Virus record (IMG/VR): IMGVR_UViG_3300019742_000011
Location: 1 to 26,828 of that record
Source of the DNA: a virus
DNA length: 26,828 nt
Reading direction: 5' to 3' (one strand)
Shown: piece after piece, positions 7,261-24,424 of the stretch
Layout: the number at the start of each line of letters is the position of its first letter
Numbering within the stretch: position 1 is the stretch's first letter
Made by a program: the position numbers and the translations under genes
The notes under the pieces: generated by a model
The model's database searches: none
Seen by the model: the letters and a program-made list of their open reading frames with translations, nothing else
Told to the model about the DNA's origin: nothing

Positions 7261-8046
7261 TTAAAATTCATCCAAATTATCTGTTTCTATTAATTCTTCT
7301 ATCTCTAATGAAAAACCTTTTATTGCTTCATTAACTCTATTTTGAGCTATTTCAAAATAATCTTTATCTAATTCTATACCTATACCTTTTCTATTTAATT
7401 GTTTACAAGCTACTAAAGTTGAACCACTTCCCATAGTAAAATCTAGTACGGTTTCATTTTCGTTTGTATAGGTTTTAATTAAATATTCCATTAATTTAAT
7501 CGGTTTTTGAGTAGGGTGTAGTTTATTTCTTTGCAATATTTTTATATCTTTTATTATACATTTTGGTAAATATTTACTGCCGTCATTACCCTTATTTGTT
7601 TTTTCTTTTGCATAATAATTTTGTTGTTCACCTTTTATTTTACCCTTTATCGGTTTATAACCAACCCCGTACTCATATTGAGGATTATATATAGGAGGTT
7701 TGTTATAAAAAACAATAATATCCTCTGTATTTTTAGCAGGTTGTTTATTCATATTAAAAAAATTACTAGATGAATTCTTCTCCCATATCCAATCGTATCT
7801 AAAATTGTTTATATTGGATACCCTTAATTTAGAGCTAAATGGCTCAACTCCAAATAATATAATAGCTCCATTAGGTTTAATTAATTTATTTAATCTCATC
7901 CACATCTCATCAAAAGGAATTATTGAATCCCAAGAGCAATTTGTAGTTCCGTAAGGAATATCTGTAATTATAGAATCAACATTAATATTCTTTTCAATTA
8001 ATTTATCCATAATTTCTAAACAATCACCATTATATAAATCAATCAT
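7261..8046 (-). CDS. DNA adenine methyltransferase 1 (beta-class)
   Basis: A 261-residue AdoMet-dependent DNA methyltransferase in beta order. Motif IV is near the N-terminus but reads DIPYGT instead of DPPY. A variable middle (about 95-175) is the likely target-recognition region. Then come KLHPTQKP and motif I DFTMGSGST with IGIELDKDYFEIAQNR. No restriction enzyme gene is adjacent, so it is probably solitary, protecting phage DNA or altering recognition sites. It is one of three close paralogues (16705-17469, 23633-24424) with near-identical ends and divergent middles. A TTTAAAC-N10-TATAAT promoter lies just upstream. The P-to-I change in motif IV is unusual; activity should be tested rather than assumed. 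Confidence 0.9.
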   Translation of the reverse strand: MIDLYNGDCLEIMDKLIEKNINVDSIITDIPYGTTNCSWDSIIPFDEMWMRLNKLIKPNGAIILFGVEPFSSKLRVSNINNFRYDWIWEKNSSSNFFNMNKQPAKNTEDIIVFYNKPPIYNPQYEYGVGYKPIKGKIKGEQQNYYAKEKTNKGNDGSKYLPKCIIKDIKILQRNKLHPTQKPIKLMEYLIKTYTNENETVLDFTMGSGSTLVACKQLNRKGIGIELDKDYFEIAQNRVNEAIKGFSLEIEELIETDNLDEF

Positions 8047-13152: not shown

Positions 13153-13884
13153 TTATACTAAATCAACCTTAGGATTAGCTATAATTTCAACGAACATCGC
13201 GGCTACTGGTATCATTTTATCTCTAGCTGTATGATACATATCTTGATATTTTGCTACAATTAATATAACATTTGGTTGGGATTCTGGTTTAATATATGTA
13301 TCTAAATTTTTAAAAAGATATGTAAAAACAGAACCGGGGTCACTCATATCTAATAATAACTCTCTTACTTTTGAGAAGTTTTTATCTTTAGCAAATTGCA
13401 TAAGTTTAATATATTGAGAGGTTTGATTTAGAATATTATCATCAATAATCAATTCACCTGATGTACAAGTTTTTTGAAGAATTGAAATCATTCCTCTAAT
13501 ACTAGGGTAAAATGTTGTTATAATTGTTTGAACATCCTGCTTATTATATTTAATATTTTCATTATCAAGAATGTATGTTAGTCTATTATACATTTGAATA
13601 CCTATCTCTTTTTTGTTAGATTTAAAGATATAATCAAAATCAATCTCTATAAATCTATTCCTAAGAGGTTCTATAAGTTTTTCTTTATAGTTGGCTGTCA
13701 TTATAAAAGATGTATGTTTAATATGGTCTTCTATTGTACCTCTCGCGGCTTTTTGTGCGTCTGGTGTAAGTCCATCACAATTTGATACAACAAATCCATC
13801 TTTGTGAATAAATGTATGATTTTTATGAACTGTTAGATTTATGACTCTTTTTATACCTTTTGATTTTATTGATTTAATTTTCAT
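13153..13884 (-). CDS. 44: split intein C-fragment + clamp loader large subunit C-half (gp44)
   Basis: A 243-residue protein. Residues 1-35 are an intein C-fragment: RVINLTV...HTFIHKDGFVVSN matches Hint block F and G, ending in the catalytic Asn35. The usual penultimate His is Ser. Cys36 is the +1 nucleophile and starts the C-extein CDGLTPDAQKAARGTIEDH, which continues the Walker B motif of the N-half. SFIMTAN (sensor 1) and EPLRNRFIEIDF (the SRC/arginine-finger region of T4 gp44) follow, then the collar domain. After trans-splicing with the protein at 15482-16264 the product is 316 residues (108 + 208), close to T4 gp44 (319), the ATPase that loads the sliding clamp. It starts at an ATG after AAAGGAAC and overlaps the nuclease gene by 11 bases. 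Confidence 0.9.
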   Translation of the reverse strand: MKIKSIKSKGIKRVINLTVHKNHTFIHKDGFVVSNCDGLTPDAQKAARGTIEDHIKHTSFIMTANYKEKLIEPLRNRFIEIDFDYIFKSNKKEIGIQMYNRLTYILDNENIKYNKQDVQTIITTFYPSIRGMISILQKTCTSGELIIDDNILNQTSQYIKLMQFAKDKNFSKVRELLLDMSDPGSVFTYLFKNLDTYIKPESQPNVILIVAKYQDMYHTARDKMIPVAAMFVEIIANPKVDLV

Positions 13885-15355
13885 TTTGTTCCTTTAGTGT
13901 TTTGTTTAATCCCCAAGATTTTAAAACCTTTAAAACCTTTACGAAATTTACATCTCCTATTTCTTCTCTTAGCTCTTTAATTTTATTATATAATAAAATT
14001 AAATTATTCTTAAAATAGGTTTCCGTAATAAATTCGTATTTTAAATTATTTTGTTCACAATATTCTATTGTATATCTTTCTTTGGCTTTCACTACCTTGT
14101 TATCTATTTGATTGGAAGGCTTTACTTCATATATTATGGAATTTATATTATCATAATAGTCGGTTATATAGTTTTTATATGTATTATCTATTTGGTATGG
14201 TATAATTACGGTCTCATACTCAAATGTAGGATTTAATATATGGAACATAAAATCCCATGTCGAACGATATTTATTATTGTTATAATATATTCTACAATTT
14301 ATATATCCATTTTTTGCTACTATAAAATCCCCACTTAATATCCTATTCTTCATAAATGTAGATTGTCTATCCCTAGCCTCTTGTGGATAATCTCTTGTAT
14401 ATAAATCAGGGTGTTTAAATGCCTCGTAATAACAACTATGTGAGCAAAATATTCTCTTCTTACTTGATAATCTATACATTTCACCACATATTATACAATT
14501 ATTGGTATATAACATATTAAATAGGTCTATATTATTATCTTCAATATATCTTCTTGTTGTATTATTAGAATCTACTAATACACTAAAATCCTTATTGATT
14601 TTATATGTGTATTTTATATTAATTATATCAAAAAGTTTCTCCATATATTCAAAAAGACTCTTTATGGAGGTTTTATTTGTTTTTGTATTCTTTATCAAAA
14701 GGAACAAATTATTAAATATTATATCCTTTTGATATTTTAGTAAACCTCCTTTTGGACTAACGAAATTTAAATCTTTTAATTTACTTGAATCTATTTCTTT
14801 AGGAATAGATTTATTATTTGTTCTATAGCTTACACAAGATTTATCACTACAGTAAATCTTGTGTAATAATATATTTGTGGAGAATATATTATTACAATAT
14901 TCACAAACCCTCTCTTCCGTTAGAGAATTAAAATTAACAACATTTAACTTTATAAAAGTTTTAAGTTTAATGTTACCTATATTGATATTAGAAAATGGCT
15001 CTACTATATTTTTAACCTCAGAATTAAGTCTATAGTATTCTTTATTTAGTAAAACATTTTCATATAAACCATCTATAAATTTATCCAATCTTTTATTAGC
15101 TAATGTTCTATTTACAAACTTTTTTAGTTTACCAACACATATATCATCTCCACAAGTTTCTCTATAACCATCTTTGAAACTTTTAAATTTTGCTTTATTG
15201 TCACAATATTTGCATTTAGTAACGAAAGTTATGTTATTTTCCATAACATAAGCCTCCTCTATACTTTCGTATTGCTTAATTAAATGATTTAATAAACCTC
15301 TATTCGATTGAAACACTCTACCTGTTTTGTTGCATACATAGTCTTTTAATTTCAT
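13874..15355 (-). CDS. putative homing endonuclease between the split-intein gene halves
   Basis: A 493-residue protein with three C4-type zinc-binding motifs: CKYC...C(4)C (48-73), CEYC...C(4)C (151-174) and CIIC...C(3)C (287-308). An N-terminal VCNKTGRVF...GLLNHL resembles a zinc-knuckle/finger. The C-terminal 130 residues carry STWDF (365-369), then ITDYYD (D399) and IIYEVKP (E410, K412), a D-x(10)-E-x-K core like PD-(D/E)XK and Vsr-like homing nucleases. No HNH, GIY-YIG or LAGLIDADG motif is seen. It lies exactly between the halves of the fractured clamp loader gene, as EDxHD-type nucleases do in known fractured phage genes. It probably cuts the uninterrupted gene to spread the cassette. 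It overlaps both neighbouring genes. Confidence 0.75.
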   Translation of the reverse strand: MKLKDYVCNKTGRVFQSNRGLLNHLIKQYESIEEAYVMENNITFVTKCKYCDNKAKFKSFKDGYRETCGDDICVGKLKKFVNRTLANKRLDKFIDGLYENVLLNKEYYRLNSEVKNIVEPFSNINIGNIKLKTFIKLNVVNFNSLTEERVCEYCNNIFSTNILLHKIYCSDKSCVSYRTNNKSIPKEIDSSKLKDLNFVSPKGGLLKYQKDIIFNNLFLLIKNTKTNKTSIKSLFEYMEKLFDIINIKYTYKINKDFSVLVDSNNTTRRYIEDNNIDLFNMLYTNNCIICGEMYRLSSKKRIFCSHSCYYEAFKHPDLYTRDYPQEARDRQSTFMKNRILSGDFIVAKNGYINCRIYYNNNKYRSTWDFMFHILNPTFEYETVIIPYQIDNTYKNYITDYYDNINSIIYEVKPSNQIDNKVVKAKERYTIEYCEQNNLKYEFITETYFKNNLILLYNKIKELREEIGDVNFVKVLKVLKSWGLNKTLKEQNEN

Positions 15356-15485
15356 TGTCGTCTTCTCCGAGATTTTCTTTACGAAATTTATTTATAAGTG
15401 TATTAATAAATTTAGTTACACTCATATTGTTTGTATTTATATAATTAATATTCTCTTTGGTTATCTCAATTCTTATCTTTTTCAT
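15318..15485 (-). CDS. small ribbon-helix-helix-like protein (55 aa) in the intein cassette
   Basis: A 55-residue ORF whose ATG overlaps the TGA of the clamp-loader N-half (ATGA) and which overlaps the nuclease start by 38 bases. It has a strand (KKIRIEITKENINYI), a turn and a helix starting MSVTKFINTLINKFRKE, the pattern of Arc/CopG-type ribbon-helix-helix DNA-binding proteins. The C-terminal segment of the N-half shows a similar pattern. It could repress the cassette or help the nuclease bind DNA. A caution is that part of its 3' end may just read through the nuclease start region. An unusually dense A+T sequence with two chance TATAAATA octamers lies inside it. Confidence 0.6.
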   Translation of the reverse strand: MKKIRIEITKENINYINTNNMSVTKFINTLINKFRKENLGEDDNEIKRLCMQQNR

Positions 15486-16264
15486 TTAACTTCCTCCACA
15501 ACATTCTCTAAAAAACTTCTCAAAAGATGTTCAAGATTAACTCCTGATTTTTCTAATATATCAGCTTGACTTTTTGTAAATCTTACTGTTACATCTTTAT
15601 ATTCTTCCTCTATATCAGCCACATCTACATCAAAACTATCAATAATTTCATACCTATCTAATCCATCTTTTAAAGACCTTTTAGAAATATTTCCATCATT
15701 ATCTTTAACCATAAAAGGATGTGTTTCAGTTAAAGTAATTTTTCTACCATCATCTAATTCAACCTCAAATACCTCTTCATCTTTATATGAAACAACTTCA
15801 CAAGTATCATTCTCTAATTTTTTTGATTTTGTATTAAAAGAAATACAATTATATTTAGTTCCTATTTCGAGTTCTTTTAATTTTAAGGGAATATTTTCTT
15901 TAATTGTACCTATAATAATTTCTTGATTTTCTTCAAGGCACTCGTCAATCACCACTATCTTGGTTAATCCTATATCAGCATAAGCAAACCTTGGAATTTC
16001 CGTATTAAAGCTATCAATACCTCTATCACTACCAGAACCATTTAACCACATTGAATCTGCGTCTAACTCATCAATCATAGCGTGAACTATAGAAGATTTA
16101 CCTATACCGGGTTGAGTTCCACAAATTAAAAGATTTGGGGTAGTTTCATCTTTAATATAAGTCTCGAATTGATTTCTTATCTTTTTTGGTAAAATCATAT
16201 CCTCTAATAATTTTGGTGCATATTTCTCCGGCCATATATATTGTTTATTATCTATTTTTTTCAA
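15482..16264 (-). CDS. 44: clamp loader large subunit N-half (gp44) + split intein N-fragment
   Basis: A 260-residue protein. Residues 1-108 are the N-extein of a gp44-like AAA+ clamp loader: WPEKYAPK, Walker A GTQPGIGKSS (49-58) and Walker B KIVVIDE (102-108). The chain then enters an intein at Cys109. CLEENQEIIIGTIKENIPLK matches Hint block A, and GRKITLTETHPFMV (173-186) matches block B with T179-x-x-H182. The tail (about 222-260, DVTVRFTKSQADILE...LLRSFLENVV) looks like an extra ribbon-helix-helix domain. There is no C-terminal intein block, so splicing must be in trans with 13153-13884. The start is TTG at 16264, four bases after AAAGGAAG, overlapping the NADAR frame; no ATG serves. Confidence 0.92.
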   Translation of the reverse strand: MKKIDNKQYIWPEKYAPKLLEDMILPKKIRNQFETYIKDETTPNLLICGTQPGIGKSSIVHAMIDELDADSMWLNGSGSDRGIDSFNTEIPRFAYADIGLTKIVVIDECLEENQEIIIGTIKENIPLKLKELEIGTKYNCISFNTKSKKLENDTCEVVSYKDEEVFEVELDDGRKITLTETHPFMVKDNDGNISKRSLKDGLDRYEIIDSFDVDVADIEEEYKDVTVRFTKSQADILEKSGVNLEHLLRSFLENVVEEVK

Positions 16265-16393
16265 TTTCTTCCTTTATTTTTTCTAACATTTTGCCTAATT
16301 TATTTTGTCCTACTCCTCTACACACTCCCCAATAAATATCACCCCAATAGTTGTCCTCTACAATAGGTTCTTTTATATCTATCAGTAATTTTT
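16248..16393 (-). pseudogene. C-terminal part of the NADAR gene in a shifted frame
   Basis: In the frame offset from the ORF above it, sequence from the A5 run (T-run on the plus strand at 16389-16393) reads KLLIDIKEPIVEDNYWGDIY, then WGVCRGVGQNKLGKMLEKIK, and ends at TAA 16248-16250. This is the conserved C-terminal NADAR segment (LL-x-T/I...E...D-x-x-WG-x-G...G-x-N-x-LG). Deleting one A from the run joins it to the N-terminal part to give about 137 residues, a normal family length. It overlaps the TTG start of the clamp-loader N-half by 17 bases. Confidence 0.75.
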
Positions 16394-16659
16394 GCAAAAT
16401 GAGGTTTAGAAAATTTTAATTTTAGTGCATTTAACATTACCTTATCTTTTACAATATCCCAATCATCTCTAATATCTATAGTTTTACCATATTTTTTAGA
16501 TTCATAAGGATTCATAGAACTTATTTTAATACGCTCATTTATATCGTTACTTTTAAAAGCTTGATACATATTTTCAGTAGATTTGTATATAATTCCTTTA
16601 TATTCTATTGGACATATTGTCATATTAGACAAAAATGCGTACTCATCTTTAAATCTCAA
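16339..16659 (-). CDS. NADAR-domain protein, N-terminal part (frameshifted gene)
   Basis: The first 83 or so residues are a clear NADAR (YbiA/DUF1768) domain: FLSNM...PIEYKGIIYKSTENMYQAFK, then WDIVKDKVMLNALKLKFSKPHFAK. After the A5 run at 16389-16393 the frame reads an unrelated tail (ITDRYKRTYCRGQLLG) and stops, while the true C-terminus continues in another frame to 16248. NADAR proteins act on ADP-ribose compounds; some remove ADP-ribose from guanine in DNA. In phages this could undo host ADP-ribosylation defence or act in NAD+ metabolism. It starts at TTG after AAAGGAATACC and is first after the promoter at 16678-16700. Confidence 0.8.
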   Translation of the reverse strand: MRFKDEYAFLSNMTICPIEYKGIIYKSTENMYQAFKSNDINERIKISSMNPYESKKYGKTIDIRDDWDIVKDKVMLNALKLKFSKPHFAKITDRYKRTYCRGQLLG

Positions 16660-16704: not shown

Positions 16705-17469
16705 TTAAAATTCATCCAAATCTATTAATTTTTCTATCTCTAATGAAGAGCCTTGTATAGCTTCACCAACTCTATTTTGAGCTATTTCAAAATAATCTTT
16801 ATCTAATTCAATTCCTATACCTTTTCTATTCAAATTTTTACAACCCACTAAAGTTGTTCCACTACCCATAGTAAAATCTAATATAGTTTCATTTTCGTTA
16901 CTATATGTTTTAATTAAGAATTCCATTAGTTTAATCGGTTTTTGTGTTGGATGTATCTTATTTCTATCCCTATTGAATTTTTGGATAGAACAAGGAAATC
17001 TATTTGTATTAGGTTCTCTTTTTGCACTACCTCCCATTATATTAAAACTAGAAACCTTACCTATAGAGCCACTTTTAGATATTTTAAATCCATCCTCCAT
17101 TTGAGGGTTATATGTTGGTTGTTTTCTATAGAATATTGATATATTTTCGTGCTTTTTACCTATTTGTTTTTTCATAAACATAAAATTTGTAGCCTGTTCT
17201 TTCTCCCAAATTATATCATACCTATATATTTCTAAATTAGAAACTCTTAATTGAGAACTAAAAGGTTCACTTCCAAATAATACAATAGCTCCACTAGGTT
17301 TAATCAATTTATTTAATCTTAACCACATTTCATCAAAAGGAATAACTGAATCCCATTTACAAGCTGTAGTTCCATAGGGAGGGTCTGTAATTATAGAATC
17401 AACCTTAATATTATCTTCTATTAATTTATCCATAATTTCTAAACAATCACCATTATATAAATCAATCAT
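16705..17469 (-). CDS. DNA adenine methyltransferase 2 (beta-class)
   Basis: A 254-residue paralogue of methyltransferase 1. The N-terminus through motif IV (DPPYGT, intact here) and PFDEMWLRLNKLIKP is almost the same, as is the C-terminus from KIHPTQKPIKLMEFLI through motif I DFTMGSGTT and IGIELDKDYFEIAQNR. The middle (about 95-165, with FCKxx-free, Gly/Ser-rich sequence) differs strongly and should set a different target. No restriction partner is seen. It lies 11 bases after the gene at 17480-18100, from which it is probably co-transcribed. AAAAGGAGTTAA precedes the ATG, the same leader as methyltransferase 1. Confidence 0.92.
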   Translation of the reverse strand: MIDLYNGDCLEIMDKLIEDNIKVDSIITDPPYGTTACKWDSVIPFDEMWLRLNKLIKPSGAIVLFGSEPFSSQLRVSNLEIYRYDIIWEKEQATNFMFMKKQIGKKHENISIFYRKQPTYNPQMEDGFKISKSGSIGKVSSFNIMGGSAKREPNTNRFPCSIQKFNRDRNKIHPTQKPIKLMEFLIKTYSNENETILDFTMGSGTTLVGCKNLNRKGIGIELDKDYFEIAQNRVGEAIQGSSLEIEKLIDLDEF

Positions 17470-23632: not shown

Positions 23633-24424
23633 TTAAAATTCATCAAAAGAATCCAAATTATCAACATCTTCTAATTTTTCTAAACTAGAACCCAAAATAC
23701 TTTCATCTATTCTATTCTTTGTTATATCAAAATATTTCTTATCTAATTCAATTCCTATAAAGTTTCTATTAAGTTGTTTTGAAGCTATACCAGTTGTTCC
23801 ACTTCCCATTGTAAAATCTAATATAGTTTCCCCCTCATTACTAAAACTGGATATTAGAAATTCCATCAAAGGTATTGGTTTTTGTGTAGGGTGAACTTGG
23901 TCTTGTCTTCTCCATTTTTGAGGAAAGTCTAATATTGTATCAGGATGTCTTGTACCTGTGTTGTTAGTTTCTACACCTTTTATGCCATATTTCATATTAT
24001 TTACTTTATTTGGTGTAAACTTTCTTTTATATGCTTTACCTACTTTCATTTGAGGATTATAGTTAATTCTTTTACCTTTTTGTTCAAATATCATAATATC
24101 CTCGTGTTTTGTTAGAGGCTTATATTTAGCAGTTAAAGGACTTCCACATTTTGACTTTTTCCAAACCATTGTATATTTAAATCCTTTAATATTAGAACCT
24201 ATAAGAAGAGATGTGAATGGTTGAGTGCCAAATAATACAATAGCTCCATTGGGTTTTATTAGTTTATTAAGTCTTTTCCACATTTCGTCAAAAGGAATTA
24301 TAATATCCCAACTGATATTATGAGAGCCAAATGGAGGGTCACATATAATAGCATCTACTTTTACCCCTTTTTTGATTAGTTTATCCATTATTTCTAAGGT
24401 GTCACCATTATGTAGTTCAATCAA
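23633..24424 (-). CDS. DNA adenine methyltransferase 3 (beta-class)
   Basis: A 263-residue third paralogue. Motif IV is DPPFGS. The frame around it (EIMDKLIKKGVKVDAIICDP, IPFDEMWKRLNKLIKP) and the C-terminal HPTQKP and DFTMGSGTTGIASKQL...FIGIELDKKYFDI follow methyltransferases 1 and 2, but it is more diverged from both. The middle differs again (KSKCGSPLTAKYKPLTKHED...), so a different target is expected. The start is TTG 24424 after AAAGGAACAAAT. A promoter of the common type lies upstream (24443-24465) and another at its 3' end. No restriction partner is visible. Confidence 0.9.
   Translation of the reverse strand: MIELHNGDTLEIMDKLIKKGVKVDAIICDPPFGSHNISWDIIIPFDEMWKRLNKLIKPNGAIVLFGTQPFTSLLIGSNIKGFKYTMVWKKSKCGSPLTAKYKPLTKHEDIMIFEQKGKRINYNPQMKVGKAYKRKFTPNKVNNMKYGIKGVETNNTGTRHPDTILDFPQKWRRQDQVHPTQKPIPLMEFLISSFSNEGETILDFTMGSGTTGIASKQLNRNFIGIELDKKYFDITKNRIDESILGSSLEKLEDVDNLDSFDEF

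What the first reader, a model, noticed from the sequence alone, without database searches (positions are those of the whole stretch)
15482..15601. Intein N-fragment carries an extra ribbon-helix-helix-like tail
After the expected intein N-fragment the protein runs on for about 40 residues (DVTVRFTKSQADILEKSGVN, then LEHLLRSFLENVVEE): a strand, a turn and a helix typical of Arc/CopG DNA-binding folds. It would be cut out with the intein, so splicing could release a DNA-binding protein. That would tie clamp loader maturation to cassette regulation or nuclease targeting. Known split intein N-fragments end near 90-100 residues.
Basis: inference. Interest (0 to 1): 0.72.

Follow-up and report, generated by a model that had tools for sequence, protein, structure and literature searches.

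The report
Conserved extra domain on phage intein
In a T4-like phage, the front half of a split, self-splicing protein insert (an intein) in a DNA-replication gene carries a small extra domain, which a second phage has kept although it lacks the usual neighbouring DNA-cutting gene; this suggests the domain serves the intein itself, but its shape and function are not yet proven.

Summary
The minus-strand ORF 15482-16264 is the N half of a T4-type clamp-loader subunit (gp44) plus a normal ~103-residue IntN, then a 13-residue linker and a 36-residue tail. IntC plus the rest of gp44 is at 13153-13884, with an endonuclease gene between: the known 'fractured gene' layout. The tail is not noise. A second phage (L004) has a tail 58% identical in its core (the intein is 52-63% identical, the exteins 50-55%), under purifying selection; the linker is not conserved. 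The other 17 intein-bearing relatives compared lack it. L004 has no endonuclease gene between the halves, so the tail tracks the split intein rather than the nuclease; this weakens the nuclease-targeting idea. AlphaFold puts the tail outside the Hint fold: flexible linker, extended segment, two helices. Ribbon-helix-helix is plausible but unproven: the best family hits are RHH antitoxins (E=0.007, far below cut-offs), my CopG/NikR profile and Foldseek gave nothing, and the first helix is about one turn short. After splicing the tail stays joined to IntN, so it is not released as a free DNA binder. I favour a dimerising accessory domain of the split intein; DNA binding remains possible. New variant of a known kind.

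The parts
15941..16264 (-). gp44 (clamp loader) N-extein, aa 1-108, with intact P-loop GIGKS
   Evidence: PHROG 168 E=1.4e-22; Foldseek to T4 clamp loader 3u61
15632..15940 (-). IntN of a typically split intein, C1 = C109, block B TETH, about 103 aa
   Evidence: NCBIfam intein_Nterm above cut-off; Pfam Intein_splicing E=1.9e-6; Foldseek to Npu DnaE split intein
15593..15631 (-). flexible linker, aa 212-224, not conserved with L004
   Evidence: pLDDT below 50 for residues 206-225; 0 identities in the ungapped comparison
15485..15592 (-). accessory tail domain, aa 225-260, beta-alpha-alpha, RHH-like
   Evidence: 58% identity to the L004 tail; helices 231-240 and 244-259; RelB/ParD E=0.0069
15318..15485 (-). 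small ORF of 55 aa ('RHH2'), ATGA overlap with the IntN-tail stop, strong Shine-Dalgarno GGAGGA, same strand/helix spacing as the tail
   Evidence: best hit MazE antitoxin E=0.08; chance of 55 open codons 0.003; similarity to the tail not significant (p=0.09); no relatives found
13874..15355 (-). free-standing homing-type endonuclease (TnsA/VSR-like nuclease core), 493 aa
   Evidence: Pfam Tn7_TnsA-like_N E=5.1e-6; PHROG endonuclease E=6e-20; homologue at the same place in L002
13780..13884 (-). IntC, 35 aa, ending SN before +1 Cys
   Evidence: NCBIfam intein_Cterm above cut-off; 63% identical to L004 IntC
13153..13779 (-). gp44 C-extein
   Evidence: PHROG 168 E=8.4e-41

Best explanation
This is a fractured gp44 gene whose two halves are joined by a typically split intein. 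In this phage lineage the IntN half has gained a small tethered domain exactly at the position where the endonuclease sits in contiguous inteins. The domain most likely folds as a compact dimerising strand-helix-helix unit of RHH type, and its conserved job is tied to the split intein: holding or shielding IntN precursors, or bringing precursors together, until IntC from the second ORF arrives. Trans-splicing then joins gp44 and removes IntN-tail bound to IntC. Shown: the tail exists, is conserved, is predicted to lie outside the Hint fold, and is kept when no endonuclease lies between the halves. Inferred: dimerisation, RHH fold, splicing itself, and a role in precursor handling rather than in DNA targeting.
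For: Tail core conserved as strongly as intein and exteins between window and L004, linker not. L004 IntN-tail runs straight into IntC by an ATGA overlap with no endonuclease. Tail absent from the other 17 intein-bearing relatives compared, whether split with an endonuclease or contiguous. AlphaFold: linker disordered, two helices, tail-alone pLDDT 78. Strand faces alternate V-V-F / V-V-M as in a ribbon, but outward positions differ (T,R,T against T,N,R), while the start of helix 2 (NLEHLLRxFL) is nearly invariant, which fits a conserved protein contact better than a conserved DNA-reading face. IntN precursors of split inteins are often aggregation-prone (PMC11923092).
Against: Only two examples are known. 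Split IntN fragments in other phages do without a tail. RHH homology is not significant by profile or fold search. No dimer could be modelled. A role in precursor handling is inference without direct evidence.
Confidence: 0.45

Rival explanations
1. The tail is a true RHH DNA-binding domain that represses the gp44/intein cassette or marks DNA for the homing process, with the neighbouring small ORF 15318-15485 as a second RHH partner.
For: Top family hits of tail and small ORF are antitoxins of RHH type; same strand-to-turn spacing in both; translational overlap and strong ribosome site.
Against: Scores far below cut-offs; profile test within the range of shuffles; tail net charge near zero; outward strand residues not conserved; L004 lacks both the small ORF and the endonuclease.
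Confidence: 0.25
2. The tail is a relic of a domain of a lost or replaced homing endonuclease that once was fused inside the contiguous intein, now drifting or kept only as a linker.
For: It sits at the endonuclease insertion point; the endonuclease is a separate gene in the window and absent in L004.
Against: The core is under purifying selection while the linker next to it is not conserved.
Confidence: 0.2
3. The tail is kept only because its 3' end carries the ribosome binding site of the next gene (GAGGAA before ATGA).
For: GGAGGAAGTTAAATGA in the window and GAGGAACAAAAATGA in L004.
Against: This explains only the last few codons, not the conserved strand and helices up to 30 codons upstream.
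Confidence: 0.05

Closest known systems
Fractured genes with split inteins and free-standing endonucleases (Dassa et al. 2009, NAR 37:2560; known here through its citation in PMC11766414 and from general knowledge, the paper itself was not available)
   Same: Host gene broken in two, IntN and IntC on separate ORFs, free-standing nuclease gene between them, T4-like replication gene as host.
   Different: IntN has a 49-residue C-terminal extension; one relative (L004) has the split and the tail but no nuclease.
Typically split inteins such as Npu DnaE and gp41-1 (IntN about 100 aa, IntC about 40 aa; PMC11923092)
   Same: Split at the endonuclease position, catalytic C1, TxxH, His in block F, SN before +1 Cys.
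   Different: Extra tethered domain after IntN.
Ribbon-helix-helix proteins (CopG, NikR N-domain, RelB/ParD antitoxins)
   Same: Alternating strand, N-capped second helix after G-x-N/S, weak hits to RelB/ParD and RelB/DinJ models.
   Different: First helix about one turn shorter (12 instead of 16 residues from strand end to turn), scores below all cut-offs, fused to an intein fragment.

Membership tests
Typically split intein | IntN with catalytic Cys1 and block B TxxH | tested here: met
   C109 and TETH; intein_Nterm 27.4 bits over cut-off 24.5
Typically split intein | IntC on a separate ORF with block F His and SN before a nucleophile | tested here: met
   NLTVHKNHTF...VVSN/C; intein_Cterm 20.4 bits over cut-off 15.6
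Typically split intein | Trans-splicing activity | not testable with these tools
   needs expression of both halves
Fractured-gene arrangement (Dassa 2009) | Free-standing endonuclease gene between the two halves | tested here: met
   ORF 13874-15355, homologous to the gene in the same place in L002
Ribbon-helix-helix (RHH) superfamily | Sequence match to a curated RHH model above its cut-off | tested here: not met
   no Pfam RHH hit; RelB/ParD 16.6 bits against cut-off 60; CopG/NikR profile not clearly above shuffles
Ribbon-helix-helix (RHH) superfamily | beta-alpha-alpha topology in a monomer of about 40-45 residues | tested here: inconclusive
   extended segment and helices 18-27 and 31-46 of the 47-residue model, pLDDT 78; helix A short by about a turn; no Foldseek match
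Ribbon-helix-helix (RHH) superfamily | Dimer with an intermolecular antiparallel ribbon | not testable with these tools
   no dimer prediction offered
Ribbon-helix-helix (RHH) superfamily | Sequence-specific DNA binding through the ribbon | not testable with these tools
   needs a binding assay; outward strand residues differ between the two homologues

The most novel reading that the evidence does not exclude
A split intein that carries its own dimeric DNA-binding domain on IntN, so that the clamp-loader precursor or the excised intein binds phage DNA and couples gp44 maturation to regulation or homing.
Probability: 0.15. Interest if true: 0.75.

Novelty: new variant of a known kind. Interest (0 to 1): 0.42.

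Why it matters
Split inteins are treated as bare fragments that end where the Hint fold ends. A conserved domain appended to IntN, retained in a phage with no nuclease gene at the site, would be a natural example of a split intein carrying an accessory assembly or binding module. That bears on why split inteins persist once the nuclease is gone, and it offers a natural design for improving split-intein tools, where IntN aggregation is a known problem (PMC11923092). No paper combining split inteins and ribbon-helix-helix was found in the library, and the four that mention inteins and ribbon-helix-helix are, by title and abstract, about other topics.

Tried and rejected
Close-relative scan with the whole protein found nothing; the alignment-based scan was needed. 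Tail alone against phage records gave no match and against about 85,000 prokaryote genomes none, so no donor for the tail was found. The pattern NLEHLLRxFL gave only L004's contig and a chance antisense hit inside a collagen-like tail gene (L034). Relatives of the small ORF 15318-15485: none. Homology of that ORF to the tail: suggestive by eye, not significant. Programmed -1 frameshifting from tail to small ORF: no slippery heptamer at GTT AAA TGA. Helix-turn-helix reading of SQADILEKSGVN: considered and set aside, because position 5 is Leu and the second helix is too long and too hydrophobic; no HTH family hit. Structural library searches with the 47-residue model gave nothing significant. 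My own RHH profile was built from six sequences and has little power.

Full report
What the window is. The 26.8 kb window is an AT-rich, T4-like phage fragment held as a virus record. On the minus strand it carries phage DNA polymerase, DnaB-like helicase and SbcC-like genes and, at 13153-16264, a clamp-loader gene (gp44; PHROG 168 E=1.4e-22 and 8.4e-41 for the two halves) broken in two.

The intein. The first ORF (15482-16264) reads gp44 aa 1-108, then an IntN beginning at C109 (CLEEN...) with block B TETH. The second ORF (13153-13884) begins with a 35-residue IntC (block F His, SN before Cys) and continues as gp44. Curated models for both ends are passed above cut-off. Relatives empty at this site read ...VIDEADG... 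(L031, L032, L039, L040), which fixes the insertion point. Between the halves lies a 493-aa endonuclease with a TnsA/VSR-like nuclease core, 35% identical to the gene at the same place in LR756500 (L002). This is the known fractured-gene arrangement.

The tail. After the last Hint strand the IntN ORF continues for 49 residues: a 13-residue linker and a 36-residue core, VTVRFTKSQADILEKSGVNLEHLLRSFLENVVEEVK. A scan of IMG/VR with an alignment of the window and L002 proteins returned 26 loci. Of the rows aligned, one other carries a tail: L004 (IMGVR_UViG_3300003873_000051), with VTVNMRKDQVDILKNSNINLEHLLRGFLDTIIEEQK. The core is 21/36 identical (58%), against 52% for IntN, 63% for IntC, 55% for the middle extein and 50% for the C extein. 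Amino-acid-changing differences are depleted against silent ones (Fisher p=0.023). In the ungapped comparison the linker shows no identities. The other 17 intein-bearing relatives aligned, from split loci with an endonuclease and from contiguous inteins, end or continue to IntC within a short stretch and have no such domain.

What the L004 locus says about function. In L004 there is no endonuclease between the halves: the tail stop overlaps the IntC start (AAATGAAAATTAAG). The tail therefore persists with the split intein and without a nuclease at the site, over a divergence in which gp44 itself has changed by half. This argues that the domain serves the intein or its precursor rather than aiming the nuclease. 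Close gp44 relatives of L004 (75-77% identical in the C extein) lack this intein (L031, L032), and so do L039 and L040, so the allele is patchy. A nuclease encoded elsewhere in L004's genome cannot be excluded, because only a fragment is held.

Fold. AlphaFold on the full protein with a 20-row alignment gives low confidence in the linker (pLDDT below 50 at 206-225) and helices at 231-240 and 244-259. The tail alone, with L004 and the neighbouring small ORF as alignment, gives mean pLDDT 78, an extended segment and two helices. The RHH assignment is not proven. For it: RelB/ParD E=0.0069 and RelB/DinJ E=0.11 for the tail, MazE-type antitoxin E=0.08 for the small ORF, and only one hit at E<=1 among 20 control peptides. 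Against it: no Pfam RHH match, scores far below cut-offs, a profile of CopG, NikR and relatives (sequences checked) scoring the tail within the range of its shuffles, no Foldseek hit, and a strand-to-turn distance of 12 residues against 16 in CopG and NikR. Foldseek and profiles have little power on 40-residue domains, so these negatives are weak.

Mechanism. By established intein chemistry, trans-splicing joins the two gp44 parts and leaves IntN-tail in complex with IntC; the tail is not set free. The nearly invariant start of helix 2 (NLEHLLRxFL) and the variable outward strand residues fit a conserved protein contact, most simply a dimer, better than a conserved DNA-reading surface. I therefore favour an assembly or shielding role for the IntN precursor (confidence 0.45), with DNA binding second (0.25) and a relic third (0.2). 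These roles are inferences.

The small ORF. 15318-15485 begins inside the tail's stop (ATGA) behind GGAGGA and has the same strand-helix-helix spacing, but its similarity to the tail is not significant (p=0.09) and no relative was found. It may be a second copy or an unrelated small gene.

Noticed in passing
L004:5390-7382: gp44 is encoded in three pieces: besides the tail-bearing intein, a second, atypically split intein (IntN about 22 aa, large IntC) interrupts the P-loop at GK/T, so two trans-splicing events are needed for one clamp-loader subunit.
   Followed up: partly
L031:3697-5143: A close relative of L004 has only the atypically split P-loop intein and an empty second site; L042 has a P-loop intein split with a large extra ORF on the N side.
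   Followed up: partly
L014, L015, L017: The same intein family with endonuclease sits in a different AAA+ ATPase host gene (not gp44) at an equivalent LLLDE/C site, which suggests movement between Walker B motifs of different genes.
   Followed up: no
window 7261-8046, 16705-17469, 23633-24424: Three related DNA methyltransferase-like ORFs (DIPYGT / DPPYGT / DPPFGS motifs), about 260 aa each, in one 27 kb fragment.
   Followed up: no
window 16339-16659: A NADAR-domain protein (E=1.8e-9) lies directly upstream of gp44; its reading frame may continue in another frame (16248-16397), possibly a frameshift or sequencing error.
   Followed up: no
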